NCBI GenBank assembly: GCA_003676145.1 | Contig: NAUB01000015.1 | Coordinates: 62,001-126,000, forward strand | Direction of reading: 5' to 3' | DNA: 64,000 bases | Origin: a gamma proteobacterium symbiont of Stewartia floridana | Lineage (GTDB): Bacteria; Pseudomonadota; Gammaproteobacteria; Chromatiales; Chromatiaceae | Part shown: piece by piece, positions 3,947 through 50,019 of the stretch | Numbering within the stretch: position 1 is the first letter of the stretch | How the letters are laid out: each line of letters begins with the position of its first letter | The notes under the pieces: generated by a model | What the model was told of the DNA's origin: nothing | What the model saw: the letters and a program-made list of their open reading frames with translations, nothing else | The model's database searches: none | Program-made: the position numbers and the translations under genes

Positions 3947-4686
3947 TCTTTCAACCACCCATCCAGGACCGGCAGCGCACTGTGACGGGTCAGATCCGCA
4001 TGCAGGGGGGTCACCGAGACATATCCCTGCCTGACCGCATGAAAATCTGTGCCGGGTCCCGCATCCTGCTCGGCTCCGGCAGGACCCACCCAATAGATGG
4101 TGTTACCCCTCGGGTCATGGCTTTTGACCACCGGCTCCGCTTTATGCCGATGCCCAAGCCGGGTGGAGACGATACCCTGCAGCTCCGAATAGGGAATATC
4201 GGGCACGTTCACATTCAGTATCACGCTCTCACTCAACGGCGCCTCGATCAATCGTCTGACCAGAATCTCGGCAACCTGAGCACCGGTCTCGAAATGTTGA
4301 GGATTGTGGGAGTTCATTGAGATGGCGACTGCTGGCAGGCCAAGGAAGCGGCCTTCAGTAGCCGCAGCAACCGTTCCCGAGTAGAGCACATCATCCCCCA
4401 TATTCGGCCCGGCATTGATGCCGGAAACCACCAGGTCCGGCTCCTGCTCGAGTAGCCCGGTGATCGCCAGATGGACACAATCCGTCGGCGTACCGTCCAC
4501 CCGGATGAAGCCATTCTCCATGGTCCGGGCGCGCAACGGATTAACCAGAGTCAGGGAGTTGCTGGCGCCACTGCGGTCCTGCTCAGGGGCCACAACCACA
4601 ATATCGCCGACTTCGGACAGCTGCTCGGCCAGCATCATCAGCCCAGTAGCCTGATAGCCGTCATCATTACTCAGAAGGATGTTCAT
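3943..4686 (-). CDS. surE: 5'/3'-nucleotidase SurE
   Basis: Stationary-phase survival nucleotidase hydrolysing nucleoside monophosphates, metal dependent. The start [15 protein letters not shown] holds the diagnostic metal-binding Asp-Asp (DD) at residues 8-9, followed by [14 protein letters not shown] and [22 protein letters not shown]. It is 247 aa from the ATG at 4686, close to the family norm; a longer in-frame start 15 codons upstream has no conserved residues. It is the first gene of the minus-strand block surE-pcm-yqaA-nlpD-rpoS. Its usual upstream partner, truD, lies 44 kb away in this window (48958-50019). Confidence 0.97.
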
Positions 4687-4780
4687 AGGGGGCACAATAT
4701 ACTGTAAATAGTGATCAGTCTCACCCTCCAAATCCCCAGCGGGTGACGCGAGGGATTGAGATTCTTCTCAACCGCTCACG

Positions 4781-4793
4781 GGGCCTGTTAACA
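4781..4793. repeat. 13-mer GGGCCTGTTAACA, copy 1
   Basis: Exact 13-base word also found at 46362-46374 and 48844-48856. All three lie just upstream of minus-strand genes (surE here). It could be a regulatory site or a relic of a small dispersed element; I have no functional evidence. Confidence 0.4.
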
Positions 4794-4827
4794 TTAAGTG
4801 ACGAGACACAGAATCCTCAGCCTGACG

Positions 4828-5376
4828 ATGAGCAAAAAGAGCGACAAATCCGATGACAATGCACTCTTCCACGAACAACTCGGGGATGCGGTGCCACTCA
4901 ATGAGTCACGTGCGGAGCCCTATCGCCGCCGTCTGGCCCCCAGACCGCTGAATCTGCCGGTCGGGGATGAGGAGGAGTCCTCACAGGACCACTATTCGGA
5001 TCACGAGATCGAAACCGGCGAGGTACTCTATTTTGCCAGACCGGGCGTTCAAAAACGCCTGATGCACGACCTGCAACGGGGCTATCTGGAGATTGGTGGG
5101 GAACTGGACCTGCATGGCCTGACGGTTCGCTATGCCAGGGCTGACCTGGATGAGTTTCTAAAGCAGTGCCATCAGCGACGGATCCGCTGCGTGCGGATCA
5201 TACACGGCAAGGGTTATGGCTCGGAAAGCAGACAACCCATCCTCAAGCACAAGCTCAACATCTGGTTGCGCCAGAGAGAGGATGTCCTGGCCTTCACTTC
5301 CGCGCCCAGTCGGGATGGCGGAACGGGCGCCGCCTATGTTCTACTGCGCAATCCGGATAAAAGCAGCCGCCGTTAG
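4828..5376 (+). CDS. Smr-domain protein (SmrA/YdaL/YfcN type)
   Basis: Stand-alone Smr (small MutS-related) protein, 182 aa. The C-terminal half carries the Smr hallmarks LDLHGLTVRYARADLDEF and IIHGKGYGS, followed by FTSAPSRDGGTGAAYVLL. Family members have nuclease or nicking activity, or act on ribosomes (SmrB). The N-terminal 80 residues are a charged linker with DNALFHEQLGDAVPL, like the YfcN/SmrB N-terminus. I chose the ATG at 4828 because its MSKKSDKSDDNALF start resembles the family; an in-frame GTG at 4798 would add ten residues. It is divergent from surE. Precise substrate unknown. Confidence 0.9.
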   Translation: MSKKSDKSDDNALFHEQLGDAVPLNESRAEPYRRRLAPRPLNLPVGDEEESSQDHYSDHEIETGEVLYFARPGVQKRLMHDLQRGYLEIGGELDLHGLTVRYARADLDEFLKQCHQRRIRCVRIIHGKGYGSESRQPILKHKLNIWLRQREDVLAFTSAPSRDGGTGAAYVLLRNPDKSSRR

Positions 5377-5580
5377 CCACTCAAAAGCAGCCAGATGAGG
5401 CGATTTGAGTGTGCATACTCAACAGGCATTGAAATTCAGCTTAATCCGAGTAAAATACTGGGTTATTATAAAGCAGTACAAGTAACATCACGATCCGATG
5501 ACGCCTCCCCTCAGACCCGCGACTTGACTGCCGACTCCGGTAAACACCGGACCGATAGAGATCTATAGGAGAATTTGAAC

Positions 5581-6138
5581 TTGGCAATCAGAATCAAGAG
5601 TCAATGGCACGATGAGGATGCCACACGTTCTGCTGATGAGATTGGTGGCGCGATTGCATTCATTGCCTGGCGTATCGCACTCGACAAGGCGATCACCCTG
5701 CATGGAGAGAACTTTGTCTATCACAATGATCAACAGCGCCTGGCGGTGATTGCCGAATATCTGATCTACGAGGTACAGATCGCTGACCGTCTGATCCACC
5801 CAATGGGAGACGATGAAAACCGGGTGGCAATCATTACGGCCCTGGTGATGAAGCTGGCCGATCACTACCGGGACAATGCCGTCGAGTTGCTCGGTGACGG
5901 TGACCACGCCAACCATCTGATCGGACTCTACAATGAGCGCTCCGCAGAGTATGCCGAGTTCAACTTCAGCGACCAGGGACCCAGCTACCCGTTTCTGCGC
6001 CACCTGGGTTATGAGATACAGCAGGTGATGGCAGGCGATGAACACGACAACCGCTGGGTGATCGATCAGGTCATGGACGTGGATGGGCCGGAGGTCTATA
6101 AACAGCTCTCCCGTGCGATCAGAAACCTTTTCGATTAG
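5581..6138 (+). CDS. Conserved-looking hypothetical, first gene of MoxR/DUF2201 triad
   Basis: I do not recognise this 185-aa protein. It is soluble, with no signal peptide or membrane segment. It appears helical, and is rich in His and Asp (GENFVYHNDQQRL, MGDDENR, ADHYRDNAVELLGDGDHANH). Two TTG starts are possible, at 5575 and 5581; the strong AGGAG at 5567-5571 is 9 nt from the second and only 3 nt from the first, so I use 5581. It ends 9 nt before the MoxR ATPase, so the three genes at 5581-8459 form one operon and probably one complex. Confidence 0.75.
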   Translation: MAIRIKSQWHDEDATRSADEIGGAIAFIAWRIALDKAITLHGENFVYHNDQQRLAVIAEYLIYEVQIADRLIHPMGDDENRVAIITALVMKLADHYRDNAVELLGDGDHANHLIGLYNERSAEYAEFNFSDQGPSYPFLRHLGYEIQQVMAGDEHDNRWVIDQVMDVDGPEVYKQLSRAIRNLFD

Positions 6139-6147
6139 GAAGTACCT

Positions 6148-7191
6148 ATGCGTCCCATCCAGCTACTCACCATTCTCGAGCAAGAGTTCATCAGCACCCG
6201 CGCCGGCCACCACACCCCGGTGATGCTCTGGGGTCCACCCGGCGTGGGTAAATCGGACATGGTTCGAGAGGTCGCGCAGAAGCATCAGGCCCCGGTGATC
6301 GACATCCGACTGTCACAGATGGAGCCCAGCGATCTGCGCGGAATACCCTTCCGAACCAACGGCAGCGTCGAATGGGCAATCCCCTCGCTTCTGCCCAATC
6401 AAGAGCGTCATGGCAGCCAGGGCATCCTGTTTCTCGATGAGATCACTTCCGCACCACCCACGGTTTCGGCCGCAGCCTACCAGCTGATACTGGATCGACG
6501 CCTGGGCGAATATCAGGTACCTGAGGGCTGGGCCATCTTTGCCGCAGGCAACCGTCAGGGTGACCGGGGGGTTACCTACAGTATGCCTGCACCTCTGGCA
6601 AACCGCTTCTCCCATTTCGAGGTAGAGACCAACCTGGATGACTGGGTCGCCTGGGCCTACCGCAATCAGATTGACGAACGGATCATCGCTTTTCTGCGTT
6701 TTCGACCTGAACTGCTGTTCGATTTCGATCCGGCACATAACCCGGTGGCATTCCCTTCGCCGCGCTCCTGGGAGTTTGCCCATCGGGCGCTGCAGAAATT
6801 CATCGACCACCCTCAACTGCTGCAAGGTGCTTTGCAAGCCTGTGTCGGGCCGGCAGCCGGGGTGGAGCTTCATGCCTTCGTCAGCAGTCTGGACAAGATG
6901 CCCGATCTGGATGCGATCTTACGCGGTGAAGAGGTCTCTGTACCCAGTGAGATCGATCTGCAGTATGCGGTTGCCTCTGCGCTTGTGGGGCGTGCGATCC
7001 GGGCGAATGAGTCGGGTAACGGAGTCGAGGTGCATGGTCGCATACTCGAATATGCCGGCCGCTTCCCACAACGGGAGATGGGTGTGATGCTGGTTTCCGA
7101 TATGCACCGGGCGATTGGTGAAACCCTGTTCAGCGTTCCACAGTTCAATGATTGGGCGCAGGCGGTATCCGATGTGATGCTGTATGAATAA
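6148..7191 (+). CDS. MoxR-type AAA+ ATPase
   Basis: AAA+ ATPase of the MoxR/AAA_5 group, 347 aa. Walker A is LWGPPGVGKSDM near residue 28, Walker B is GILFLDEITSAPP near residue 92, and sensor-1 is FAAGNRQGDRG, followed by the NRFSHFEV arginine-finger region. MoxR ATPases act as chaperone-like partners that activate or assemble a protein complex, usually with a von Willebrand A protein. Here that partner is the gene 35 bp downstream. The target is unknown. Confidence 0.92.
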   Translation: MRPIQLLTILEQEFISTRAGHHTPVMLWGPPGVGKSDMVREVAQKHQAPVIDIRLSQMEPSDLRGIPFRTNGSVEWAIPSLLPNQERHGSQGILFLDEITSAPPTVSAAAYQLILDRRLGEYQVPEGWAIFAAGNRQGDRGVTYSMPAPLANRFSHFEVETNLDDWVAWAYRNQIDERIIAFLRFRPELLFDFDPAHNPVAFPSPRSWEFAHRALQKFIDHPQLLQGALQACVGPAAGVELHAFVSSLDKMPDLDAILRGEEVSVPSEIDLQYAVASALVGRAIRANESGNGVEVHGRILEYAGRFPQREMGVMLVSDMHRAIGETLFSVPQFNDWAQAVSDVMLYE

Positions 7192-7226
7192 AAAACTGCT
7201 GCCAAGCCTGTTAACCGGGAGTAGCG

Positions 7227-8459
7227 ATGGATCAAGATGAGATCGAGACCAAACTGGCCGCCGCGCGGACCAAGCTGATTCTTGATAAGCCTTTCCTCGG
7301 TGCACTGGTGATGCGACTACCGATGCAGGAAGCCAATCCAGACTGGTGTCCAACCACGGCCACTGACGCCAAATCCTTCTATTACAATCCTGAATACATC
7401 GATCAGCTGAGTCTCGATGAGACCCAGTTCATGCTGGCCCATGAGGCCCTGCACTGCGCCCTCTCCCACTTCGCCCGACGACAGCATCGAACCAAGCTGC
7501 ATTGGGATATGGCCTGTGACTATGCGATCAACCCTCTGCTCACCGAAGATGGCCTGAAGCCACCACCGGGCTCATTGATGCTGCCCCAATTCAGCGGCAT
7601 GACCGCTGAAGAGATCTACCCCTGCCTGGATGAGAAGAGTGACGACGAACCGCTGGACAATCATGTCTATGACCAAGACAACACGAAAGGCTCAGGCAGC
7701 GGCAAATCGGAAAAGGATATGGCCAACAGCCAGCAGCAGAACAATAACGAACAAGAGGGTGACGAGGAGAGCAATCCCCAGAGCGGTTCAGGCAACGCCG
7801 CCTCTCAACCACCTCCCCTCTCCCCGGATGAGGCTGAGACCCTGAATATCCAGTGGCAACAACGCATGGCCGGGGCGGCCCAACAGGCGATGCAGGCAGG
7901 AAAACTGGATGGCGCTATCGCCCGAATGGTCGACCATCTGTTGCAGCCCCAGCTGCCCTGGCGACTGCTGCTGGCAAGGTATATGACCGCGTTGGCAAGG
8001 GATGACTTCAGCTATCAAAGACCCTCCCGTCGAGAGGGGGAGTTCATTCTACCGAGTCTGCGCAGCAATCAGTTGGAACTGGTGGTTGCCCTGGATACCA
8101 GCGGCTCGATACAGGACCAGGAGATGGGGGAGTTTCTGGCTGAGGTCAATGCACTCAAAGGCCAGATGCGGGCCCGGGTCACCCTGCTCGCCTGCGATTC
8201 GGCCATCGCGGAAGAGGCGCCCTGGATCTATGAATCCTGGGAGGAGTTCGAGCTGCCTGAAAAAATCACCGGCGGTGGTGGTACCAGCTTCAAACCGGTT
8301 TTCGAGTGGATCGCTGAGCAGGACCTGAGCCCGGACCTGGTGGTCTATTTCACCGATGCGGAGGGGGCTTTCCCCCCCCATGAACCCCACTACCCGGTTA
8401 TCTGGCTGGTCAAAGGCAAGCACAAGACACCCTGGGGTCAGCGCATCCAGCTCAACTGA
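7227..8459 (+). CDS. DUF2201-type putative metallopeptidase with VWA-like domain
   Basis: 410-aa cytosolic protein. The N-terminal domain has a zinc-peptidase motif, HEALHCALSHFARR (HExxH) near residue 72, and CDYAINPLL. The middle is a low-complexity Gln/Asn/Ser/Glu linker (about residues 140-200). The C-terminus is VWA-like with an altered MIDAS (VVALDTSGSIQ), then GGGGTSFKPVF and VYFTDAEGAFP. This domain order is that of DUF2201/VWA-like proteins paired with MoxR ATPases. A cut or folded target is unknown. An SD-like GGGAG lies 7 nt before the ATG. Confidence 0.9.
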   Translation: MDQDEIETKLAAARTKLILDKPFLGALVMRLPMQEANPDWCPTTATDAKSFYYNPEYIDQLSLDETQFMLAHEALHCALSHFARRQHRTKLHWDMACDYAINPLLTEDGLKPPPGSLMLPQFSGMTAEEIYPCLDEKSDDEPLDNHVYDQDNTKGSGSGKSEKDMANSQQQNNNEQEGDEESNPQSGSGNAASQPPPLSPDEAETLNIQWQQRMAGAAQQAMQAGKLDGAIARMVDHLLQPQLPWRLLLARYMTALARDDFSYQRPSRREGEFILPSLRSNQLELVVALDTSGSIQDQEMGEFLAEVNALKGQMRARVTLLACDSAIAEEAPWIYESWEEFELPEKITGGGGTSFKPVFEWIAEQDLSPDLVVYFTDAEGAFPPHEPHYPVIWLVKGKHKTPWGQRIQLN

Positions 8460-8510
8460 TGTTTGCTGGAAACTGTCGCGCAGCGAACCCGGGGCGATCA
8501 GTGGATAGGC

Positions 8511-9080
8511 TTACAGCGCTTTCTTCAGTGTGAAGGCGCCCCGTAGATCACCAGGCTTGTAACCACGCGCCTCATCAGCGGGATAGAGCTCATTGAGTTT
8601 GGCGCTGACCGGCTCGGCTAATTCAGTACCATGACACTTGGTGCAGACTTCGGCAGTCGGAATCGCCTTCATCATACGGAACACTTTACGGCCGTTTTCC
8701 TCAACCACTTCCGCTTTGATCATCTTCATGGGATCTTCACCGTTGCTCTTACGGCTTTCAAATTCATTCAGTACCGCAGTCTCCCAGGCGTCGGCCCGGT
8801 TTTCAGGATTCCGCAGCTTGAGGCTGGTCCGACCCACACTCCAACCGCTCATCTGAGAATGAGCTTCAGTGAGACTGGGGGCAACGGTATTACAGGTTGA
8901 AATGGTTGCGACCGGGCCATTCGCCTTCATACCCTTTTGCAGTTCACCTTTGAGGTCGCCGAAATAGGCTTTGATCACCCCTTTGCCCTCTTTGATATTG
9001 GCCTGCATGGCCTGATCTGCCTGAACGCCTCCGCTCAGGACAATGGATGCGAGAAACAAAACTACGCTCTTCTTCATCAT
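8511..9080 (-). CDS. Periplasmic c-type heme protein, DUF3365/Tll0287-like
   Basis: Exported 189-aa protein with a cleavable signal peptide (KKSVVLFLASIVLSGGVQA) and one c-heme motif, CTKCH, near the C-terminus. The fold signature (ISTCNTVAPSLTEAHSQ, WSVGRTSLKLRNPENRAD, WE, VFRMMKAIPT) is that of DUF3365, a PAS-like heme c domain that serves as a sensor or small electron carrier. I chose the start at 9080 for the signal peptide and the GGAG in front. It is convergent with the DUF2201 gene and divergent from the BepA-like gene. Role in sulfur metabolism is possible but not shown. Confidence 0.88.
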   Translation of the reverse strand: MMKKSVVLFLASIVLSGGVQADQAMQANIKEGKGVIKAYFGDLKGELQKGMKANGPVATISTCNTVAPSLTEAHSQMSGWSVGRTSLKLRNPENRADAWETAVLNEFESRKSNGEDPMKMIKAEVVEENGRKVFRMMKAIPTAEVCTKCHGTELAEPVSAKLNELYPADEARGYKPGDLRGAFTLKKAL

Positions 9081-9459
9081 GGAACTCCGTTGATTGATAG
9101 CCAATGTGAACCGGTTGGGATCAAACTGCACACCGCTCCCAGCCGGACGGTTGGTCGTGAGGCGCTAGATTAAAGCAAATAGTGAAAAAGACAACCTGTT
9201 AATTCTTAAAGATTTATTGAGTATTCGGTAAAACCGAACAATGTCCCTTTAAGCATCAAAAGAGACCAATGATTCAAGCTACTCTTGGGCTATAAACCCT
9301 TGCCGCAATCGCCTGCCGACTATCGCCCGTAAAGATATGGCGCTAAGATGCCACAGACTCGTTATCCCGATACAATGGGACTGTCCCCATAACAGGCACT
9401 TCCTATTTAAGAGTTCTGATTCAGGAACTATTCTGCATCAACAGGTATCAGTTATTGGC
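9081..9459. other. Divergent intergenic region
   Basis: About 380 bases between the heme-protein gene (minus) and the BepA-like gene (plus). It should hold both promoters. An A/T-rich stretch at 9165-9240 is the likeliest promoter DNA, but I see no convincing paired -35/-10 boxes, hairpin or repeat. Confidence 0.4.
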
Positions 9460-10920
9460 ATGACAAAAACACCTCTGAATATCCGCATCACGCTGCTCCT
9501 GCTGGCACTGATACTACCCACGGCCAGCGCCGTAACAGAAGAAGAGAACATCAAACTGCCTGAACTGGGTTCCCCATCAGACCAATACCTGACACCGGCG
9601 GATGAGATCAGGCTTGGCCGTGAATTCATGCAGAGCGTCAGAAAGACAAGCCCGGTAATGGATGACCCGTTGATCGCGGAATACATCCAGACCCTGGGTG
9701 AGAAGCTGCTCAAGCAGAGTGAAGCGATCGGCCAGGAGTTTAACTTTTTTGTCATCGAACTCCCTGAAGTCAATGCTTTTGCCGGCCCCGGTGGTCATAT
9801 CGGCATCTACAGCGGACTGATTCTGGCGACCCAAAGCGAGAGTGAACTGGCCTCGGTAATCGCTCACGAAATTGCTCATGTCACTCAAAAACATCTGCTG
9901 CGGGCCTTTGATGCGGCAAATCAGATGAGTGGTAAGACAGCCGCCCTGCTACTCGCCTCCATCCTGGTTGGCGCCGCCACTTCACCGGATGCCGGGATTG
10001 CCCTGGCCACCGGCGTTCAGGCCAGCGCCGTGCAGGAGCAGATCAACTTCACCCGCAGCAATGAGGAAGAGGCTGACACGGTGGGTATCAGGATACTGGC
10101 CAAATCCAACTTCGACCCCCGCGCCATGCCGATATTTTTCGAACGCCTGACCCATGCCAGCCGCCTCTATGATTCGGGGATACCGGAGATTCTGCGTACC
10201 CATCCGGTTACCACCAACCGCATTGCTGACGCCCTCGGAAGAGCTGAGACCTACCCCTACAAACAGTACCCGGGGAAATTGAGCTATTTTCTCACCCGCG
10301 AAACGCTAAGGGTCAGATCCTTTAAGGATACGAAAGCCGCCGTGAAGCATTTTGCCAGCGGGCTGGAGGAGGGCCGGCACCTGAATCAGGAGGCACATCA
10401 GTACGGCTACGCTTTGGCATTGAAGGCCGACCATCAGTATGAAAAGGCTGAAAAGCTGGTTGAGAAACTGTTGAAGAGTGCACCGCAGCAAGCGGAGTAT
10501 GTCCTACTCTCCGCAGACATCGCCAAGCAGCAGGATGAGGCTGGAAAATCCCTGAAAATGCTTGAGACCTACTATCAACTGATGCCTGAAAGTTACCCGA
10601 TCTCAATCGCATATATTGAAGATCTGACGGAAAACAAGCGCCTCGAAGAGGCCAAATCCGTAGCCCAGCAGACCCTGACGCTGCATGACAGGGATCCGAG
10701 ACTCTATCGCTTGCTCAGCAAGATTGAGCAAAAGGCCGGACGGAAAGCCGAATCTCACCGCATGCTGGCAGAGTCCTATGTGGCCAGGGGAGAGTATCAC
10801 CCGGCCATCCGGCAGCTGGAGATTGCATTGAAAGAGGCGGAAACAACCGATTTCTATCAGACATCCAGAATCGAATCCCGCTTACAAAAACTTCGTGATC
10901 TGGTCAAAAAGGAGCAGTAA
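9460..10920 (+). CDS. bepA: BepA-like periplasmic M48 metalloprotease with TPR domain
   Basis: Outer-membrane-protein quality-control protease and chaperone. From the ATG at 9460 it is 486 aa, almost the size of E. coli BepA. It has a signal peptide (LLLLALILPTASA), an M48 protease domain with ESELASVIAHEIAHVTQKH (HExxH) near residue 135, a third zinc ligand region (NEEEADTVGIRILAK), and a C-terminal tetratricopeptide region from about residue 300. In BepA the TPR pocket contacts BamA and LptD. The in-frame extension to 9337 has no signal-like sequence, so I rejected it. Confidence 0.93.
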   Translation: MTKTPLNIRITLLLLALILPTASAVTEEENIKLPELGSPSDQYLTPADEIRLGREFMQSVRKTSPVMDDPLIAEYIQTLGEKLLKQSEAIGQEFNFFVIELPEVNAFAGPGGHIGIYSGLILATQSESELASVIAHEIAHVTQKHLLRAFDAANQMSGKTAALLLASILVGAATSPDAGIALATGVQASAVQEQINFTRSNEEEADTVGIRILAKSNFDPRAMPIFFERLTHASRLYDSGIPEILRTHPVTTNRIADALGRAETYPYKQYPGKLSYFLTRETLRVRSFKDTKAAVKHFASGLEEGRHLNQEAHQYGYALALKADHQYEKAEKLVEKLLKSAPQQAEYVLLSADIAKQQDEAGKSLKMLETYYQLMPESYPISIAYIEDLTENKRLEEAKSVAQQTLTLHDRDPRLYRLLSKIEQKAGRKAESHRMLAESYVARGEYHPAIRQLEIALKEAETTDFYQTSRIESRLQKLRDLVKKEQ

Positions 10921-11273
10921 ACCGTCGAGGATCTGACAGCACCTGTTGAATAGGCCCTGACAGCAGGCCTGTCGATGAGGATTTCCCTTATGCCACGCCA
11001 GATCCGGCGAAGATCTCACTCCGCCCTGCCGCTGTCTCATTTCATGGCCTGAACAGGCCTGATTCATCCCCAAACCGGTCATTTGGCAATCTTCAGACCA
11101 GATAGGCCCGGTTTTTAGCGGTCAGCCAAGCCATACCCCGCAAAACCGCCGGTTGGGATAGCATATAACTCTAATTCAGGAAAACCCCTACCCGAAGCGG
11201 AACAAACCCAAGCCTTTCATAAGGGTGCCATGCTGCTAACATCACAAAGCACTAATATTTCAAAATTTTTTGC

Positions 11274-11301
11274 TTGATATCGCTCTCTGATTCGGTATTC
11301 T
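11274..11301 (+). promoter_or_regulatory. Candidate sigma-70 promoter ahead of soxYZ
   Basis: TTGATA (11274-11279), a 16-bp spacer, then TATTCT (11296-11301), in an A/T-rich stretch. It would give a leader of roughly 420 nt before soxY. Seen directly, but the function is inferred. Confidence 0.35.
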
Positions 11302-11475
11302 TACGATCTACCTGTAAAGGTATTGTTTATCGGCAAACCCGTTTAAATAAGAAGAAGCCGGTAAGAACGCATCCTCGATAACGAAATAAACACTGGAGGA
11401 CATGGTGCACAGCTGTCGCAACTTTTTACTGTAAAAGTTGTTCTAAGCCACTGACAAACATGAGTGACCGTGAGT

Positions 11476-11622: not shown

Positions 11623-11730
11623 ATCCCGACCAAATTTTGTCACAGAGAACTGGGCAATGAAATTGACCAACCCATTCAGTTTCATAAAACAAACGTTAAT
11701 CACTAACCTTTCTCAGTCTGGAGAGAATGA

Positions 11731-12207: not shown

Positions 12208-12253
12208 TCGCAGCTGATTCCGTCAACCACATAACGAATACGAGGTATAGAGC

Positions 12254-12568: not shown

Positions 12569-12621
12569 TGATCCGCTGCAGCAACTGCTGTTGAGTTCGA
12601 GTCGTAACGATTCGACAAAAT

Positions 12622-12832: not shown

Positions 12833-12841
12833 CTTAACCCG

Positions 12842-42442: not shown

Positions 42443-42893
42443 CACTGTTTCTCCCAATGGTCGTTTATCGAGGTCGTCAGCATTTTCTACATCCTAATTT
42501 TTCTTGGCTGAGAACCAAGTTGTAGAATCTGGCCACCGACCCGCAATCTTAACCTCACAGGCAGGGCCTGTTTCTACTGGCCGACAAGTTTAGAGTTTCC
42601 TAATGCTCACCCATATCCTTCCGATGGGAGAGACAGGGATAGAAACATCTATCCCAAATGGGATAGAAAATCGATGTTCAATTGCCATGTTTTAAACACC
42701 ATTACCTACATAACCACTGCAATCACAGCGAGTTATAAATCATTCCCAACTTATTCAATTAAGTGAATATCCCTTTTTTCTTTAGGGGAGAGAATTGTAA
42801 GCTTTAACGGCAGATAGGACTTGAACCCAACTTAAGCATATTGTTCAATAGTAATATCCTAGCGTTTTACTAAGTATTTAAACGGATAAAAGT
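42443..42893. promoter_or_regulatory. dsrA upstream region (divergent)
   Basis: About 450 bases between dsrA (minus) and the 58-codon ORF (plus). Contents I can see: an alternating triple repeat at 42636-42667; a palindrome ATTCA-6-TGAAT at 42753-42768; a candidate minus-strand promoter TTGAAT-15-TATAAC (plus-strand 42758-42753 and 42737-42732), which would start transcription near 42725; and TTGAAC/GTTCAA inverted half sites at 42821-42826 and 42843-42848. Promoter assignment is weak. Confidence 0.5.
42636..42667. promoter_or_regulatory. Three alternating 8-bp inverted arms upstream of dsrA
   Basis: GGGATAGA (42636-42643), TCTATCCC (42648-42655) and GGGATAGA (42660-42667), each separated by 4 bases, so the arms repeat every 12 bp. 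Any neighbouring pair forms a perfect hairpin. The same 8-mer occurs at 44617-44624, 30 bp before the RspA-type gene. Confidence 0.8.
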
Positions 42894-43123: not shown

Positions 43124-43834
43124 GTGAAGTATTTGGAATCAGAAACCTTTCTCGGAGACAGCGAAAGCGCTGAAGATGCTGTCAAATCAAGCAAGCTTCT
43201 CGAGGTTAAGCTGCAGGAGATCCGCCAACAACTGGAGGCGCTCGATACAGACAGCGTCTCTGCACAACGCCTCTCACTGGAGATTGAGAGCTGCTATATC
43301 CTGCTCGATCTGGATCGCAACGATGAAGCCTGGCAGATCGCCAAGCGCGTGTTTGAGAGAGCGCTCGCATCTGAACTGTGGCTGGCTGCGGTGGAGGCGT
43401 GTGACGTGCTCTACCAGGCGGAGAAGGAAGACGGTCCCAAAGCGCTGGCTCACGGTATCTGGCTGGGGGTCACCTTTCCCATCGATCCTGAACTCAGCGT
43501 TGCCATGTTGCAGCATCTGATCGACGAAACACCGGATAAATCGGATGGTGCTGCGGTGGCGGCGGCAACCGCCTGCTACATCGTCGATCTGCGTGCCGAG
43601 GGGCAGACCCAGGAAGACCTCAGGTTTTTCACCAACCAGCTGATGGGCCAGGTTGCCAGACGCCACAGCCAGGTGGAAGAACAGGAGATCTTCGATTTCT
43701 GGGTGGAGCGCATGGAACTGGACGATCCGGCCAAATTTCTCCCCCGGCTGGCCACTGTGCTGGATGTGATCATCGATGGAGACTGGTGGTATGACCGGGA
43801 TGAATTGCGCAGTAAAATACCGGCAGAAGCCTGA
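43124..43834 (+). CDS. Helical (TPR-like) protein next to the Cas6-like gene
   Basis: 236 aa, GTG start. The whole chain is amphipathic helices: LQEIRQQLEALDTDSVSAQ, SYCILLDL-type repeats (RNDEAWQIAKRVFERALA, ELWLAAVEACDVLYQAEKE) resembling tetratricopeptide or HEAT solenoid units. I recognise no named family. It ends 12 nt before the Cas6/Cmx6-like ORF and is probably a partner of it. Confidence 0.75.
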   Translation: MKYLESETFLGDSESAEDAVKSSKLLEVKLQEIRQQLEALDTDSVSAQRLSLEIESCYILLDLDRNDEAWQIAKRVFERALASELWLAAVEACDVLYQAEKEDGPKALAHGIWLGVTFPIDPELSVAMLQHLIDETPDKSDGAAVAAATACYIVDLRAEGQTQEDLRFFTNQLMGQVARRHSQVEEQEIFDFWVERMELDDPAKFLPRLATVLDVIIDGDWWYDRDELRSKIPAEA

Positions 43835-43846
43835 TTGGAGTTGAAT

Positions 43847-44506
43847 ATGTTCTGGCAGGAAGAGCAGGATGAGGAGCGGTTTGTGGTCCCGGACAATGTC
43901 CTGGATCTGCTGTTCAAGATCAACTGCCCCACCCTTCCCATCGATCACGCCTGGGCGCTGTCACAGGCAATCCAGCAGGCCCTGCCCTGGTTTGCCGATG
44001 AACCGAATGCGGGTCTGCATCTGATCTACGGGGCGGATTCGGGTAACGGCTGGGAGCGTCCATCCGGCGGCGACCAACTGCTCTATCTGTCGAGACGCAC
44101 GCCACTGACACTGCGCCTGCCCAACAGTCGCATCGAGGATGCGCAGGTACTCAGCGGACAGACCCTGGATATCGATGGCCACACCTTGGAGATCGGTAAA
44201 TCCCATACCCGTCTGCTTGGTATGACCACGACCCTCTATTGCCGCCATCTGCTTGCCTCGGAGAATCAGTCGGAAGATGAATTTCTGCAGCAATCGGTGA
44301 ATCAGCTGAAAGCCCTTAATCTGAGTTTCAAAAAGGTGCTTTGCGGCAAAGGGGAACAGTTTGAGACGCCGGAGGGGCCGCTGATTACGCAAAGCCTGAT
44401 GGTGGCAGGCCTACCCCTGGATGATGCCGTCACACTCCAGGAGGAGGGATTGGGGCCATTACGAACTCGCGGCTTTGGCTTGTTTAATCCACACAAGACT
44501 GTTTAA
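43847..44506 (+). CDS. Cas6/Cmx6-like (type I-MYXAN) RAMP-fold protein, no CRISPR array nearby
   Basis: 219 aa. It matches my memory of the Cmx6 family: FVVPDNVLDLLFKINCPTLPIDHAWALSQAI, LPWFADEPNAGLHLIY, SGNGWERPSG, LLYLSRRTPLTLRLP, and a C-terminal glycine-rich loop GLGPLRTRGFGLFNPHK, a Cas6/RAMP hallmark. Cas6 proteins bind or cut CRISPR precursor RNA. No repeats, cas1, cas2 or effector genes are present in the window, so a non-CRISPR RNA role is plausible. GGAG lies 6 nt before the ATG. Next to dsr and rspA-like genes. Confidence 0.75.
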   Translation: MFWQEEQDEERFVVPDNVLDLLFKINCPTLPIDHAWALSQAIQQALPWFADEPNAGLHLIYGADSGNGWERPSGGDQLLYLSRRTPLTLRLPNSRIEDAQVLSGQTLDIDGHTLEIGKSHTRLLGMTTTLYCRHLLASENQSEDEFLQQSVNQLKALNLSFKKVLCGKGEQFETPEGPLITQSLMVAGLPLDDAVTLQEEGLGPLRTRGFGLFNPHKTV

Positions 44507-44616
44507 GATTACAGGCTGCAAATTCACCGCTTGGCCGGATTTGTCTCCAACAGAGGGAGAGAAAATCCTGGTGCTGAGCGGAACAGAGAATTCCAAAATT
44601 AAAATTTGAGTTTAAC

Positions 44617-44624
44617 GGGATAGA
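44617..44624. promoter_or_regulatory. GGGATAGA 8-mer ahead of the RspA-type gene
   Basis: Same 8-base word as the dsrA upstream arms, 29 nt before the ATG at 44654. An 8-mer is expected about twice in 64 kb on both strands, so the link is only suggestive. Confidence 0.3.
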
Positions 44625-44653
44625 GTGTCTCGTGATTTAGTTAGGAGAGATCA

Positions 44654-44998
44654 ATGTCATATGAAGTAAACGGTAATACAATCGAAGCTGATGCAAACGG
44701 CTATCTGGTCAATTTGACCGATTGGAGTGAAGATGTGGCCAAGGCCATTGCTGAGCAGGAAGGTGTAAACCTGTCTGAAAAGGCATGGGAAATCATCAAC
44801 TTTCTGCGCGATGAGTATATTAACAATGGCGGCAATCAGCCTAACGAGCGTAATATGGTCAAGCACTTCAAAGGTGTCTGGACCGATGAGGGCAAAGTGG
44901 ATGCGAAAGCACTCTACATCCACTTCCCCAAAGGCCCGGCCAAGCAGGCAAGTAAGATTGCCGGCCTGCCTGAAACCAAACGCAAAGGTGGTTACTAA
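44654..44998 (+). CDS. DsrC/TusE-family protein without C-terminal cysteines (RspA type)
   Basis: 114 aa, homologous over its full length to DsrC: YEVNGNTIEADANGYLVNLTDWSEDVA, EKAWEIINFLRDEY, and ALYIHFPKGPAKQAS. Where DsrC has KQAC the sequence has KQAS, and the terminal Cys is replaced by a KRKGGY tail. Proteins of this family lacking both cysteines have been named RspA (regulatory sulfur-related protein A); they cannot carry a persulfide on the arm and are proposed to regulate. It has a good AGGAGAG SD. Confidence 0.92.
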   Translation: MSYEVNGNTIEADANGYLVNLTDWSEDVAKAIAEQEGVNLSEKAWEIINFLRDEYINNGGNQPNERNMVKHFKGVWTDEGKVDAKALYIHFPKGPAKQASKIAGLPETKRKGGY

Positions 44999-45025
44999 GC
45001 CGCTCGGTCCGAGTTGAAAAGCGAT

Positions 45026-45049
45026 GGGGTGTGGGACCTCTCACACCCC
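45026..45049. terminator. GC-rich hairpin after the RspA-type gene
   Basis: Stem GGGGTGTG (45026-45033), 8-base loop, CACACCCC (45042-45049). It follows the gene by 27 nt but lacks a T-run, so it may be a weak or Rho-aided terminator. Confidence 0.45.
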
Positions 45050-45188
45050 CCTATTCCCACCATTGCTCATCCTCCGACTCGACTTTCGCAACTCAGGGCC
45101 CAGTTAGGGCCGCTTGCGTGGACCCGGCTTTCCGGATCGTCATTTGAAATCCGAAATTTGAGTTCCAAGCTGGGCCTAAGCTATCGAA

Positions 45189-45222
45189 TCATTTGCGTTA
45201 ATTCGCGTTCATTTGCGGACAA
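45189..45222. repeat. Dispersed GCG-rich intergenic repeat, copy 5
   Basis: ATTTGCGTTAATTCGCGTTC then ATTTGCGGACAA, between convergent genes; matches the units at 28463 and 19496 (reverse complement). Confidence 0.65.
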
Positions 45223-45251
45223 GCCTTTTCCACCCCTACTCCCGGCCAGTA

Positions 45252-45926
45252 TTAGACATCACTCCACATCCGCAGCAGATTGGCATAGGACTTATCCACC
45301 AATCCGGTAGTCGATTCATCAGGCCGATTCATCAACAGATCCTCCCTCGCCTGATCAAGTTCGTAGAGCAGCTCTCGCCGTGCCGGATCACGTACATAGC
45401 TCTGTATCCAGGCCAAAGCCACCAACCTTTCACCCCGGGTCACCTCGGCAACATGGTGCAGGCTCGACGAGGGATAGATCACTGCACTGCCCGCCGCCAG
45501 CTTGACCCTCTTTTCGCCGAAGGTAGTACGAATCACCAGTTCGCCCCCTTCATATGTATCCGGTTCCCTGAGGAAAATGGTCATCGAGATATCACTGCGA
45601 AAGCGCTGACCGCTCAGCCCCATGATGGGATCATCCACATGGTCGCCATAGGTCATCCCCGAATGGTATCGGGCAAAGATCGGATCGGCCATACGATAAG
45701 GCAGAACCGCTGAACGAAAGCTACCATTCTGCCCCATGGCGCTGGTCAGAATCCGAATCAACAACTCCGTCTGTTTCGGCGAACCTTTCAGCTCCTGATT
45801 GTTTTTGACTTTCTGTGCGGCCATGCCGGCCGTCAGCTTGCCATCGACAAACTCTGCATCGGCCAGTATCTGATCGATCTTCTGTAGCAGAGCCGAATCG
45901 AGTAGACCATCAATTTCCAACAACAT
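45252..45926 (-). CDS. Fe(II)/2-oxoglutarate dioxygenase, PiuC/PKHD type
   Basis: 224 aa. The prolyl-hydroxylase-like fold has an iron site H-x-D (YGDHVDDPIM), a distal histidine region (SSLHHVAEVTRGERLVALAW) with the 2-oxoglutarate arginine, and the PiuC N-terminal DGLLDSALLQKIDQIL. Family members hydroxylate small molecules or proteins; some are regulated by iron. Two genes downstream on the same strand form a small group with the 45936-46343 gene. Confidence 0.93.
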   Translation of the reverse strand: MLLEIDGLLDSALLQKIDQILADAEFVDGKLTAGMAAQKVKNNQELKGSPKQTELLIRILTSAMGQNGSFRSAVLPYRMADPIFARYHSGMTYGDHVDDPIMGLSGQRFRSDISMTIFLREPDTYEGGELVIRTTFGEKRVKLAAGSAVIYPSSSLHHVAEVTRGERLVALAWIQSYVRDPARRELLYELDQAREDLLMNRPDESTTGLVDKSYANLLRMWSDV

Positions 45927-45935
45927 CAGAAACTC

Positions 45936-46343
45936 CTATATTGATTCCAGGGCAGATTGCATCGCTTGTTCGTCAACCGGAAATGTCACCACCGCATGCA
46001 CGGCGTAACGGGATTTTACCTCTTCCAGACGCTGCAGGTATTTCGCGTCGATCAGCACAACGATCCCGGCTTCGATATCGTAGCGTTGCAGAGTTGCCAA
46101 CAGGGATTCCAGATTACTCATACGATCCCGGAACTGGGGATCGGAGTAGAACTCCGCAACAACCACCTGAGGACGATGCTTCTTCAGCCAGGACTGGGCC
46201 TTGCGCACCGAATTGACCATCTCCACCTTGAAATTGAGACGCTGATAGAGGGGTATGAAATTTGGGTAACCACCCAATTCAACCACCGCGAGTAATTCCT
46301 GATCTTCCATACGCTTGATTTTACCTTTAGGAGACCCGATCAT
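45936..46343 (-). CDS. Degenerate receiver-like protein
   Basis: 135 aa (124 from an ATG at 46310). Alternating alpha/beta pattern like a CheY receiver: a strand ELLAVVELGG, helix, strand VVVAEFYSDP at the phosphoacceptor position (Asp not clearly placed), VVVLIDAKYL, and AVVTFPVDEQAMQSAL at the end. The acidic pocket and the lysine are not conserved. So a phosphorylation-independent receiver is my reading, with low certainty. It lies 9 nt upstream of the dioxygenase gene. Confidence 0.6.
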   Translation of the reverse strand: MIGSPKGKIKRMEDQELLAVVELGGYPNFIPLYQRLNFKVEMVNSVRKAQSWLKKHRPQVVVAEFYSDPQFRDRMSNLESLLATLQRYDIEAGIVVLIDAKYLQRLEEVKSRYAVHAVVTFPVDEQAMQSALESI

Positions 46344-46361
46344 AATCCCTCGGAAATTCCA

Positions 46362-46374
46362 GGGCCTGTTAACA
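46362..46374. repeat. 13-mer GGGCCTGTTAACA, copy 2
   Basis: Exact copy of the word at 4781; just upstream of the minus-strand start at 46343. Confidence 0.4.
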
Positions 46375-46423
46375 GAGCCTGAAACCGAGCTTATTTATTT
46401 GAGTCTTAAATTCAGTCAGTACC

Positions 46424-46741
46424 ATGCAACTAAATCTTATTATCGATGACTGGTCAATGAACCTTGAAATACCGGATGGCTATATCGATGCCATGAATGA
46501 GTCTTTCGAGAAAATGGATCAGGATATGAACAAGGGCTGGCAAATCGGCCAGAGATGGGTGAAAAACCCAGATAAAATGCAGCGCTGCCAATTGGTTGCA
46601 GGTAAACTGCTGACCGCCCTGGAGACCGACAATGAACAGTTGGCATTGATGATGGGCGGTTATATCGTCTCCCGAATGCAGGGCGTCAAACAGGTGGTTA
46701 TCGATAACACCGGTGAGCCGGAAGAGACCTCATTTCAGTAA
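46424..46741 (+). CDS. Hypothetical protein, 105 aa
   Basis: Short acidic, soluble protein (LNLIIDDWSMNLEIPDGYIDAMNESFEKMDQDM, RCQLVAGKLLTALETDNEQ, MMGGYIVSRMQGVKQVVID). No recognised domain; the regular composition and start at a divergent promoter suggest a real gene. Divergent from the receiver-like gene, convergent with the ankyrin gene. Confidence 0.7.
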   Translation: MQLNLIIDDWSMNLEIPDGYIDAMNESFEKMDQDMNKGWQIGQRWVKNPDKMQRCQLVAGKLLTALETDNEQLALMMGGYIVSRMQGVKQVVIDNTGEPEETSFQ

Positions 46742-47005: not shown

Positions 47006-47584
47006 CTAACCACCCTGCGCCATTTTCTCGGAATGGGCCTGAAATACCTTGATGGCCGGTTGATTGTTGTTTTTTCTCGCCAGATCCTCAGCACTCATGC
47101 CACGACTGTTTTTCCTCTCGGTGTCAGCGCCATGGTGGATCAACCGTTCAACGACAGGCCCGTGATGGTTATATTGCGCCGCAATCATCAGCGCATCCTC
47201 AGCGTTGTTCACCAGCTGATTGATATCCGCACCCAGTTCGATCAGTTTGTCGATGACCGCCGGATTCGAGCTGAAACCCGCCGCACCGGTCAATGGAGTC
47301 CCTTTAAAAATTGTATCGGCCTCATTGATCTCAGCACCCCGCGCCACCAAAGCCTCGATGATCAGCGGATCCTTCACAGCCATTGCCGCCCACATCAGGA
47401 CACCACCATTCTTGTTACCCGGCTGCAAGGCCTCATCGGGCACCTCGGCAACGGACTGAAGCGTTGCATCGGTCCAGTACTCCTGGGTACTGAATTTTCG
47501 ATGTGGATTGGAGATTTTAAGATAGATCGCAAACAGAACGACGACTGCCAATACGATCAGTAGTTTTGGATTGACCTGACTCAT
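47006..47584 (-). CDS. Membrane-anchored ankyrin repeat protein
   Basis: 192 aa from the ATG at 47584 (GGGAG SD). One N-terminal transmembrane helix (LLIVLAVVVLFAIYLKI), then a periplasmic part with about four ankyrin repeats: VLMWAAMAVKDPLIIEALVARGAEINEADT, PLTGAAGFSSNPAVIDKLIELGADIN, DALMIAAQYNHHGPVVERLIHHGADTE. Protein binding is likely; partner unknown. Confidence 0.88.
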   Translation of the reverse strand: MSQVNPKLLIVLAVVVLFAIYLKISNPHRKFSTQEYWTDATLQSVAEVPDEALQPGNKNGGVLMWAAMAVKDPLIIEALVARGAEINEADTIFKGTPLTGAAGFSSNPAVIDKLIELGADINQLVNNAEDALMIAAQYNHHGPVVERLIHHGADTERKNSRGMSAEDLARKNNNQPAIKVFQAHSEKMAQGG

Positions 47585-47784
47585 GCTGCTCCCTTTTAAC
47601 ACTAGCCTGCTTAATTAAAGCCCTGTGAACACTCATCCAATATGGCCATCAATGATTGAAACAAAATGGTCAATAGAGGGTTACTCTCCAGGCAGTACCG
47701 TTATATACAATAAAAATCGCTTCGACTTGGGAATTTAACACCTCAACCAGCACCATCTATTGGATTAGTGTTAACAGCTCCAGA

Positions 47785-48828
47785 TTAGAAGGTACTCGCT
47801 TCCACCATCTGCTTGATTGCCGAGCGGCTATCGACTGGCCGATTCCGGTAACAGTCGAGCAGCCGGGTCGCCAATCCGGACCAGTGGGCCTCGCCATCAG
47901 ATACCAGTTTGGAAAACCGTTGCCAGTCTTTGTCCCGATACCAGGCTTCATAGGCTGAGATCAGCGCCGGGAAGAGGGATTTACGCATCCCGCTCAAGCC
48001 ACCGATGTAGAAATGCAGAGAGGCTTCATCCTCATCTTCCAGTAACTGAGGCAGTGTCACCTGACAATCAGCCCAATGATCCCTGACTGCACGAACCATC
48101 AGCTCGGCAGCGGAATGGCCGAGCTCCAGAACCATCTGATTCCATTGATCTCCGAGTATCCGTCCCGCCTGATACTCTCCCTTCTCATGCAGCAGAACCG
48201 CTGCCAGCTCTTTCTCCACCATCAGATCGAGGGAGTCTTGCAGCTGATTATCGAAATCATAGTGAGAAAAGGCTCGCCCCAGGGCATTATCGGCCCGTTG
48301 CCATCGCCAGTTCTCAAACTTCTCCCACAACAACCGGCGAAAGGACTCCCGCCGTATATAGATGCGTCCACCCTGATTCATCGCTGCTGGTGCGGAGAGG
48401 TCTCTGGCGAGTTCACGTCCGGCAACCCATACCGAGATACCCTCCGGTTCCTCACGACGTTCCAGGTGACCTAGAAAGAACAGTGGTTTGTTTTTCGCAC
48501 CATAGCCGGCGCTATAGACCAGCCCTAAGGGTTCCAGTGATTGGTTGATGGCTTCCACATCGAAGGGATCATAGTTCTGGCCATCGATCGGCAGGGAGTC
48601 GAAGTTGTCATCCACCAGGGATTCCCACAGCGCTTCCCGGGCGGTCAGCCAATCACCGACCGACTCATTGGTCAGGGAGGCCTCGTAGTCGAGACCATTC
48701 TCCCAGCGGTAGTACTCCCGCATCTTTAAAAGGTAGGTACAAAGACCATAATCGGTGCCATGACGGGCATCCGAGATATGGCAATTGCGTTGTACCGTGC
48801 AACAGAGTTGCCTGAGTGTACCTTTCAT
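47785..48828 (-). CDS. Sfum_1244-family protein
   Basis: 347 aa, soluble. The N-terminus LCCTVQRNCHISDARHGTDYGLCTYLLKMREYYRWE is the recognisable signature of this uncharacterised family, with Cys and His residues that could bind iron or heme. The C-terminal half is helical. Some members occur in anaerobic or sulfur-cycling bacteria. Function unknown. Confidence 0.78.
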   Translation of the reverse strand: MKGTLRQLCCTVQRNCHISDARHGTDYGLCTYLLKMREYYRWENGLDYEASLTNESVGDWLTAREALWESLVDDNFDSLPIDGQNYDPFDVEAINQSLEPLGLVYSAGYGAKNKPLFFLGHLERREEPEGISVWVAGRELARDLSAPAAMNQGGRIYIRRESFRRLLWEKFENWRWQRADNALGRAFSHYDFDNQLQDSLDLMVEKELAAVLLHEKGEYQAGRILGDQWNQMVLELGHSAAELMVRAVRDHWADCQVTLPQLLEDEDEASLHFYIGGLSGMRKSLFPALISAYEAWYRDKDWQRFSKLVSDGEAHWSGLATRLLDCYRNRPVDSRSAIKQMVEASTF

Positions 48829-48843
48829 CGAGTCACCTTCTTA

Positions 48844-48856
48844 GGGCCTGTTAACA
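48844..48856. repeat. 13-mer GGGCCTGTTAACA, copy 3
   Basis: Exact copy, 15 nt upstream of the Sfum_1244-type start at 48828. Confidence 0.4.
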
Positions 48857-48957
48857 ATCCTATATTTTAGAATCTCTTTTACCAACCCCAATTATTCAGG
48901 GTAATACAGACTTGCAGAATAACTGTAACCAATTGTTTTTATATATAAAAAAAGAAA

Positions 48958-50019
48958 CTACTCCTGCACTGCCGGAAGTTCATAGACAAGCAGCTCCCGC
49001 AACATGGCAGTGGCATAACAACCGGCTGGCAGAAAAAACCTCAGCTGCAGATCCCCCTCCTCGAGAAACTGCCACTGCAGCCCTTTCAGGGCAACCCTCA
49101 AGGCTCTGCGCTCCTGTTGCAATCCCACATGTTCCAGCCCATTGCGCCACAGTTCAAAGGGGCTTAGCAGCTGCCTCTCCAGACTCTCTGTAGCCTCTTT
49201 GACCAGGCTCCGGCCACGCCCCCAGAGTGGACCGGTAGGATGAATGTCCAGTGATGCGCAGCGACTGAGCAGCCGCTCGGGCTGCTCTTCATGGTCTGCA
49301 AAACAGCCCCGACTGCCATCCAGCTGAAAATAGTCACCGGCTAGCGGACGGTTCCAGTTTCCCTGTTCGATTCGGGCGGCCAGAACCTGATTGAACAACT
49401 GGGATCTGGCGGCTGAGATAATCAATCCCCGCAAGGACCGATTGAGTCGCGGCCTGGATGGGGAGAAGAGTCGATCCGCCTGATCCAGGTTGCTGTAATC
49501 ATGGCCAAAGCGCTGCTCACCAAAGTAGTTGGGCATGCCGGCTTCCTGCAACTGCTGGAGACGCGTTTCAATAGCCTGTTGCTGTGCGTCGAGCTGTCGG
49601 ACTCTGAGCACGAAATGGTTACCCCGCAGGGTACCCCGACGCAGCTTCTTTTTGTGCCGGTGGACCGCCAGCACCTCGATCAGATCCTCATCCAGGGCCT
49701 GCCAGTCCGGCTCAGGTCGACCCGCCATACCAAGAGAGAACCATTGAGTGGTCACCGCGTGGCGGTCTTTCAAACCGGCGAAACCCACATCCTTCCGGTC
49801 GATCCCGGCGAGACGCGCCAGCTGCCCGGCAAGCCACTGGGTATTGGTCTCTCTTTTTCTGATCTGGACCAGCAGGTGTTCCCCCTCCTCATCCGGCAGG
49901 AAACCGAGCTCTTCATCCACCTGAAAATCATCCACGCAGGATCGGATCACACCACGGCCTACAGGCGTGCCATGGGCGTAGGGCATCTGCGCCAGGGTAA
50001 CCCAGGGCTGATCACTCAC
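48958..50019 (-). CDS. truD: tRNA pseudouridine(13) synthase
   Basis: 353 aa. Signatures: [50 protein letters not shown] (the GLKDRxA motif with catalytic Asp), [12 protein letters not shown], and the long TruD insertion. Modifies U13 of tRNA-Glu. It overlaps ispF by 8 nt. In most gammaproteobacteria surE follows directly; here it is 44 kb away. Confidence 0.97.

What the first reader, a model, noticed from the sequence alone, without database searches (positions are those of the whole stretch)
4686..48958. Conserved ftsB-ispD-ispF-truD / surE-pcm-nlpD-rpoS run is split by 44 kb holding the sulfur genes
Seen: truD-ispF-ispD-ftsB and rpoS-nlpD-yqaA-pcm-surE lie on the same strand in the standard order, but surE and truD are separated by about 44 kb that contains soxYZ, the dsr locus, ParA-CHAD and the dsr-adjacent cluster. 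Known: in E. coli and many gammaproteobacteria truD and surE are adjacent. Inference: the sulfur gene block entered or accumulated at the truD-surE junction.
Basis: partly seen in the sequence, partly recalled or inferred. Interest (0 to 1): 0.7.

Follow-up and report, generated by a model that had tools for sequence, protein, structure and literature searches.

The report
Old sulfur-gene block moved and rotated
In clam symbionts of the genus Thiodiazotropha an old block of sulfur-oxidation genes appears to have been shifted within the chromosome, opened at a new point and set between two normally neighbouring housekeeping genes; the genes look inherited, not newly acquired.

Summary
In detail: surE (3943-4731) and truD (48958-50019) lie on one strand, 44.2 kb apart, with soxYZ, ParA-CHAD and a dsr cluster between them. 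The window is from a Candidatus Thiodiazotropha genome. The inference that sulfur genes "entered or accumulated" is half right. In six genomes of five other genera of the family the same genes form one block (rhod..u5575 | DUF6866-dsr-pepN) away from an intact truD-smr-surE. In Thiodiazotropha the block sits between truD and smr as an exact rotation of the old order: 27-34 shared genes, strands kept, in 5 of 6 outgroup genomes. Both new junctions are genus-wide (smr|u5575 18 of 18; truD|DUF6866 17 of 18). A PhoX-like gene lying between truD and smr in a sister-genus genome stayed on the smr side in 4 Thiodiazotropha genomes. Gene trees keep the main groups, and the lower GC of dsr is seen equally where dsr lies elsewhere, so foreign origin is not supported. 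In other genera truD and surE are also separated, never with dsrA between (0 of 15). Net event: one relocation in the stem of the genus, by two inversions or an excised ring; unresolved. Ordinary kind of event, unusually readable.

The parts
658..4731 (-). rpoS-nlpD-yqaA-pcm-surE, conserved flank (surE side)
   Evidence: Pfam; collinear with G039 of the sister genus g12
4798..5376 (+). smr, stays with surE; last gene of the old surE flank
   Evidence: Pfam Smr; smr beside surE in the outgroup stretches read (in G039 with about 1.3 kb between)
5377..5574 (.). new junction smr|u5575; about 40 bp upstream of u5575 align with the old DUF6866|u5575 spacer; a PhoX-like gene sits here in 4 of 18 Thiodiazotropha genomes
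5575..17684 (.). module B: u5575, AAA ATPase, DUF2201, Tll0287-like, M48/TPR, soxY, soxZ, u12842, VWA, lipid A acyltransferase, rhodanese (mixed strands)
   Evidence: Pfam; abuts the dsr module in outgroups
17685..19557. inner joint rhodanese|ABC-2, where the former outer ends of the block meet; here with two added genes, u18058 and LolA-like (found only in the window, G006 and G071 among the genomes)
19558..23773 (-). module C: ABC-2 membrane protein, ABC ATPase, ParA, CHAD
   Evidence: Pfam; same four-gene order in G039
24072..28397 (.). pepN (M1 peptidase, minus), S4-domain gene (plus), u27948 (plus)
   Evidence: Pfam; next to dsrS in outgroups
28651..42457 (-). dsr cluster dsrA-B-E-F-H-C-M-K-L-J-O-P-N-R-S
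   Evidence: Pfam, NCBIfam; several dsr letter names assigned from family plus gene order (recalled)
43124..46741 (.). u43124, Cas6-like, DsrC-like dsrC2, 2OG-Fe(II) oxygenase, u45936, u46424: genes upstream of dsrA
   Evidence: Pfam
47006..47602 (-). ankyrin-repeat gene, found in the window, G006 and G015 among the g1 stretches read
   Evidence: Pfam
47785..48828 (-). DUF6866, end of the dsr module; old neighbour of u5575
48829..48957 (.). new junction DUF6866|truD
   Evidence: 17 of 18 Thiodiazotropha genomes
48958..56955 (.). truD-ispF-(HDOD, plus strand)-ispD-ftsB-eno-kdsA-pyrG, otherwise minus: conserved flank (truD side)
   Evidence: Pfam; collinear with G039

Best explanation
A vertically inherited chromosomal block carrying the dsr and soxYZ genes was relocated once, in the stem of Candidatus Thiodiazotropha, into the junction between the convergent genes truD and smr. 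The old linear order was rhod-B-u5575 | DUF6866-dsr-pepN-CHAD-ParA-..-ABC transporter. The new order is smr | u5575-B-rhod | ABC-ParA-CHAD-pepN-dsr-DUF6866 | truD: the same circular order with the same strands, opened at u5575|DUF6866, with the former outer ends joined. Shown: old and new gene orders, both outer junctions, the retained PhoX marker, main groups of the trees, no composition offset beyond that of relatives, no mobile-element signature found. Inferred: that it was one net event, its timing, and its path (two overlapping inversions, or excision as a ring and reintegration; both give this end product). I infer no new metabolic function from the position: internal gene order is unchanged and u5575 keeps about 40 bp of alignable upstream DNA; expression was not tested. 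Later changes are lineage-specific: small gene gains, 8-17 kb insertions between dsrC2 and the 2OG gene, and a 256 kb separation of ParA and ABC in G038.
For: Signed order of the window block is an exact rotation, opened at u5575, of that in G052 (34 of 34 shared genes), G039 (33 of 33), G034 (33 of 33), G068 (30 of 30) and G046 (27 of 27): 5 of 6 outgroup genomes tested. Module B abuts the dsr module in 6 of 6. truD-smr-surE together in those genera (G034 by distance only). smr|(PhoX)|u5575 in 18 of 18 and truD|DUF6866 in 17 of 18 Thiodiazotropha genomes. The PhoX-like gene is between truD and smr in G039 and between smr and u5575 in G029, G038, G056, G069. Flanks collinear and co-oriented between G039 and G008 for about 16 kb on each side. 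Housekeeping, dsr and module-B trees all join g1 with g12. dsr-module GC below truD-side GC in 14 of 14 genomes, 5 of them with dsr elsewhere. No word of 10 or more bases shared between the three joints, no tRNA in the window, no transposase or integrase among the window proteins searched with Pfam (ORFs below about 90 aa were not searched).
Against: G032 (g15) is not a pure rotation: u45936 and u46424 are swapped locally. In g12 the four CHAD-ParA-ABC genes are not beside pepN (in G039 69 kb upstream of truD; in G034 on another contig than pepN and truD), so their old place is inferred from g20 and g21 and they are not in the G039 and G034 counts. In G052 35 kb separate ParA from ABC and soxYZ was not found in the stretch. 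The scar where the block left was not located. dsr and housekeeping trees differ inside g1 and also in the order of g20, g21 and g26, so some dsr recombination is possible. In 8 of 18 Thiodiazotropha genomes truD and surE are on different contigs, so the whole block was not seen in one piece. In G008, G019 and G044 the dsr-module GC equals or exceeds that of the surE side, so GC says little in either direction there.
Confidence: 0.88

Rival explanations
1. Path 1 of the best explanation: two large overlapping inversions. The first has breakpoints at u5575|DUF6866 and truD|PhoX-smr and makes both outer junctions at once; the second joins the two former outer ends of the block.
For: Inversions are common large rearrangements in bacteria (recalled). 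One inversion between the two junctions gives the observed strands at both outer joints (worked out by hand from the orders).
Against: No genome with only the first inversion was seen among 18; the second must bring the two ends of the same block together.
Confidence: 0.5
2. Path 2 of the best explanation: the block was excised as a DNA ring of tens of kilobases and opened at u5575|DUF6866 on reintegration at truD|smr.
For: The order is a rotation with all strands kept; flanks stay collinear and co-oriented.
Against: No integrase and no shared repeat at the joints (Pfam calls); two inversions give the same product.
Confidence: 0.35
3. Horizontal acquisition: the dsr/sox genes entered the Thiodiazotropha ancestor from outside at the truD-surE junction.
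For: Block GC is lower than the flanks in the window; transfer of dsr genes is discussed for SAR324 and other lineages (PMC11406059, passages seen).
Against: Same block in 5 other genera, g1 joined with g12 in dsr and housekeeping trees, same GC offset where the block lies elsewhere.
Confidence: 0.04
4. Stepwise accumulation: sulfur and other genes were added one by one at a permissive truD-surE junction.
For: truD|smr carries other genes in g6 and g10, and a few genes of the window are lineage-specific.
Against: Order and strand of 27-34 genes equal those of the old block up to one rotation.
Confidence: 0.04
5. The Thiodiazotropha order is ancestral and the other genera are derived.
For: None found.
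Against: truD and surE are adjacent in 9 other genera of the order sample and in 28 of 35 other class genomes with both on one contig; five genera share the unrotated block.
Confidence: 0.02

Closest known systems
dsrABEFHCMKLJOPNRS cluster of sulfur oxidisers (Allochromatium vinosum type; gene set recalled)
   Same: Same gene set and order in the window (28651-42457).
   Different: Position between truD and smr, seen only in Thiodiazotropha here; upstream genes u43124, Cas6-like, dsrC2, DUF6866.
Sulfur gene locations in lucinid symbionts (PMC11237559; passages and section 21 seen)
   Same: Reports soxB, soxAX and soxYZ in separate clusters in Thiodiazotropha, and dsrAB beside soxY-S1c.
   Different: The parts I saw do not describe the dsr position, truD-surE or a move; whether its dsrAB beside soxY-S1c is the second dsrAB noted here was not tested.
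Bacterial intrachromosomal transposition or paired inversions (general knowledge, recalled)
   Same: A block changes place and keeps relative strands.
   Different: Here the block is rotated and both junctions persist through a genus.
Genomic island (general knowledge, recalled)
   Same: Large block in a housekeeping junction.
   Different: No integrase, shared repeat, tRNA or foreign composition found; present in every genome of the genus sampled.

Membership tests
Relocated, circularly permuted chromosomal block | Same genes contiguous elsewhere in outgroups | tested here: met
   modules B and dsr abut in 6 of 6 outgroup genomes read, 5 genera
Relocated, circularly permuted chromosomal block | Derived order equals old order up to rotation, strands kept | tested here: met
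   exact in 5 of 6; G032 has a local swap
Relocated, circularly permuted chromosomal block | Recipient junction intact in outgroups | tested here: met
   truD-(PhoX or short insert)-smr-surE in G039, G052, G032, G068, G046; G034 by distance
Relocated, circularly permuted chromosomal block | Scar at the old location | tested here: inconclusive
   178 kb of G039 against 251 kb of G008 gave no scar
Genomic island / mobile element | Integrase or transposase, flanking repeats, tRNA target | tested here: not met
   ORFs below about 90 aa not searched
Genomic island / mobile element | Composition foreign to the host | tested here: not met
   offset also present in 5 outgroups with dsr elsewhere
Oxidative (reverse) dsr cluster | dsrAB with dsrEFH and dsrL (criterion recalled) | tested here: met
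   TIGR02064, TIGR02066, two DsrE-family genes, TusB/DsrH, DsrL-like NAD(P)-binding protein
Oxidative (reverse) dsr cluster | Catalytic direction in the cell | not testable with these tools
   needs enzyme or expression work

The most novel reading that the evidence does not exclude
The block moved as an excised chromosomal ring that was reopened at a divergent gene pair (DUF6866|u5575) and reinserted between two convergent genes (truD|smr), and truD|smr is a recurrent landing site for chromosomal DNA in this family, having separately taken cellulose-synthesis genes in one genus and feoB with signalling genes in another.
Probability: 0.3. Interest if true: 0.5.

Novelty: new member of a known kind. 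Interest (0 to 1): 0.36.

Why it matters
It shows that a large sulfur-gene segment in a housekeeping junction need not mean gene transfer: here a symbiont genus's main sulfur-oxidation block looks inherited and merely relocated. The two junctions are a candidate marker for Thiodiazotropha readable in draft genomes, and the case (old order, new order, retained side marker) suits tests of how blocks of tens of kilobases move within bacterial chromosomes.

Tried and rejected
Foreign composition: not supported. Junction repeats: the repeat finder gave no pair inside the DUF6866|truD and ABC|ParA stretches; around smr|u5575 it gave one 17-nt direct pair and one 19-nt, 89% inverted pair with arms in surE and u5575, which I take as chance; the three joints share no word of 10 or more bases. 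Reading G038 (truD and surE 300 kb apart, part of the g12 flank inside) as the ancestral intermediate: considered, set aside because ParA-ABC adjacency is shared by g12 (G039, G034) and 12 of 18 Thiodiazotropha genomes. A flank marker gave no clear path: it lies about 0.38-0.50 Mb beyond truD in the five Thiodiazotropha genomes where both are on one contig with a compact block, and inside the 300 kb stretch in G038. Scar search: not found. My working label 'g12_Sedimenticola' is unsupported: g12 has no name here; the genus matching a named Sedimenticola locus (L042) in order and identity is g20. Paper searches showed no account of this move in the entries listed; long result lists were shown only in part. 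Of papers I saw: passages of PMC11059160, PMC11406059 and PMC2642828, passages and section 21 of PMC11237559; of the others only listings.
Full report
Observation. Pfam searches place rpoS, nlpD, a VTT-domain yqaA-like gene, pcm and surE at 658-4731 and truD, ispF, ispD, ftsB, eno, kdsA, pyrG at 48958-56955, on the minus strand. Between surE and truD lie 44.2 kb with smr, soxYZ, ParA-CHAD, pepN, the dsr cluster and its upstream genes.

Source. The window is G000:C36:62001-126000 of a 4.55 Mb genome. Its dsrA is 100% identical to that of a Candidatus Thiodiazotropha MAG (L034), and genome G006 has the coordinates and contig length of a Ca. T. endoloripes record (L035).

How general is the split. 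Of 79 genomes in the order sample, the 61 outside g1 divide into 17 with truD and surE within 5 kb (9 genera: g3, g10, g12, g15, g17, g18, g20, g21, g26), 15 with the two further apart on one contig, 20 with them on different contigs and 9 with one not found; in g1 they are apart on one contig in 10 of 18 (41.7-56.9 kb in nine, 300 kb in G038) and on different contigs in 8. In none of the 15 does a dsrA match lie between them. In the class sample of 143 genomes, 36 carry both on one contig: the window's own, 28 others within 5.3 kb (27 within 5 kb) and 7 others further apart. dsrA is matched in 75 of 79 order genomes (G033 only in fragments), including 16 of the 17 with adjacent truD-surE; the seventeenth, G043, has no dsrA match. 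So dsr as such does not predict the split. In g1 the window-type dsrA lies 5.3-22 kb from truD in 16 of 18 genomes; in G013 and G048 they are on different contigs. Among 52 named dsr loci with dsrB after dsrA and over 4 kb held upstream, truD was found in the flank held only in the two Thiodiazotropha loci L034 and L035; L037, also Thiodiazotropha, shows none within its 10 kb.

Old arrangement. In G039 and G034 (g12, which joins g1 in the trees), G068 (g26), G052 (g21), G046 (g20) and G032 (g15) the two halves of the window's block abut: module B (u5575, AAA, DUF2201, M48, soxYZ, VWA, lpxL, rhodanese) against the dsr module (DUF6866 or its neighbours, dsrC2, Cas6-like, u43124, dsrA...dsrS, pepN). 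Gaps in this picture: in G046 AAA and DUF2201 lie elsewhere; soxYZ was not found in the G052 stretch; DUF6866 was not found in the G052 and G046 stretches. In g20 and g21 pepN is followed by CHAD and ParA, and in G052 the old order including the ABC genes lies on one 83 kb stretch, with 35 kb between ParA and ABC. A named locus, Sedimenticola selenatireducens L042, shows the same abutment. truD-smr-surE are together in G039, G052, G032, G068 and G046, with a PhoX-like gene between truD and smr in G039 and about 2 kb there in G032; for G034 only the distance was seen.

New arrangement. Taking the 40 block genes of the window with strands, the order is an exact rotation, opened at u5575, of that in G052 (34 of 34 shared genes), G039 (33 of 33), G034 (33 of 33), G068 (30 of 30) and G046 (27 of 27); G032 (32 shared) fails because u45936 and u46424 are swapped. 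Only the G052 stretch includes the ABC genes, so only it tests the inner joint. smr is followed by u5575, with or without a PhoX-like gene between, in 18 of 18 g1 genomes; truD is followed by DUF6866 in 17 of 18 (in G048 at a contig end), while G013 has a fragment of the 2OG gene there and no DUF6866. The PhoX-like gene is between truD and smr in G039 and between smr and u5575 in G029, G038, G056 and G069, which puts the recipient breakpoint between truD and PhoX. About 40 bp upstream of u5575 align between G039's old DUF6866|u5575 spacer and the new smr|u5575 spacer (82% in G008 and G071, 77% in the window with E 0.002). Flanks are collinear and co-oriented between G039 and G008 for about 16 kb on each side; further out little matches.

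Origin. Trees of 11 housekeeping, 14 dsr and 8 module-B proteins, rooted on G032 by my choice, all join g1 with g12; the housekeeping and dsr trees both group g20, g21 and g26, but with a different order inside that trio, and they also differ inside g1 (G068 is absent from the module-B tree). dsr-module GC is below truD-side GC in 14 of 14 genomes measured, five of them with dsr elsewhere; against the surE side the offset is small or absent in some. No tRNA, no shared word of 10 or more bases between the joints, no integrase or transposase among the window proteins searched. Hence relocation of an inherited block rather than import.

Path. Two overlapping inversions, or excision and reintegration of a ring, give the same final order; no intermediate was found. 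ParA and ABC are adjacent in 12 of 18 g1 genomes and in both g12 genomes examined; they are 256 kb apart in G038, on different contigs in G013, G029, G056 and G069, and ABC is not matched in G048. I take the G038 state as secondary. In G039 the CHAD-ParA-ABC genes lie 69 kb upstream of truD instead of beside pepN; whether the block was once near truD is open.

The junction in other genera. In G012 and G018 (g6) and G021 (g10) truD and surE are 13-22 kb apart with smr still beside surE. Of the ORFs between, 5 were searched in G012 (feoB, an EAL/GGDEF protein, a histidine kinase, an ABC protein, one without match) and 3 in G021 (cellulose-synthesis genes). In G074 (g29) the order is different (surE-rpoS...pyrG-truD), not an insertion. 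The junction is thus broken repeatedly, and not by sulfur genes elsewhere as far as read.

Verdict. Real, derived, genus-wide and well explained; the kind of event is ordinary, the readability is unusual. Interest moderate. The dsr-linked Cas6-type gene, noted in passing, may deserve its own study.

Noticed in passing
window 43835-44506 (+), with 43124-43834 (+): A Cas6-type gene (Pfam Cas6 2e-52; TIGR02807 100.1 against cut-off 98.85; model pLDDT 88.5, best PDB matches Cas6 chains of a type I-B CAST Cascade, E 1e-15, TM about 0.8) is encoded on the opposite strand within 6 kb upstream of dsrA in 41 of 52 named dsr loci, gamma- and betaproteobacterial among them. A helical partner of unknown family, u43124, is there in 24 of 52. 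No array-like repeats in 80 loci or the window (crude exact-word scan) and no other cas gene among the window proteins searched. Possibly a Cas6-like RNA-binding protein tied to sulfur oxidation; two paper searches listed no account of the link.
   Followed up: partly
G000:C13:79553-80779 (L146, L147): A second dsrAB (dsrA 68% identical to the window's); among window proteins only dsrA, dsrB and a distant dsrO match in the 39 kb read. 15 of 18 Thiodiazotropha genomes give two dsrA matches. It may be the dsrAB reported beside soxY-S1c in PMC11237559 (not tested).
   Followed up: partly
between dsrC2 and the 2OG-Fe(II) gene (window 44998-45252); G044, G019, G071: 8-17 kb are inserted here in these three genomes, with Ser/Thr protein kinase genes in all three and, in G044, a LysR regulator and a tail-specific protease: an insertion-prone spot inside the dsr neighbourhood.
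   Followed up: partly
window 44654-44998: A second DsrC/TusE-family gene upstream of dsrA, found on the opposite strand upstream of dsrA in 34 of 52 named dsr loci.
   Followed up: partly
G061:C10 and G061:C83: ParA and the ABC ATPase each match twice in this draft genome: duplication or mixed assembly.
   Followed up: no
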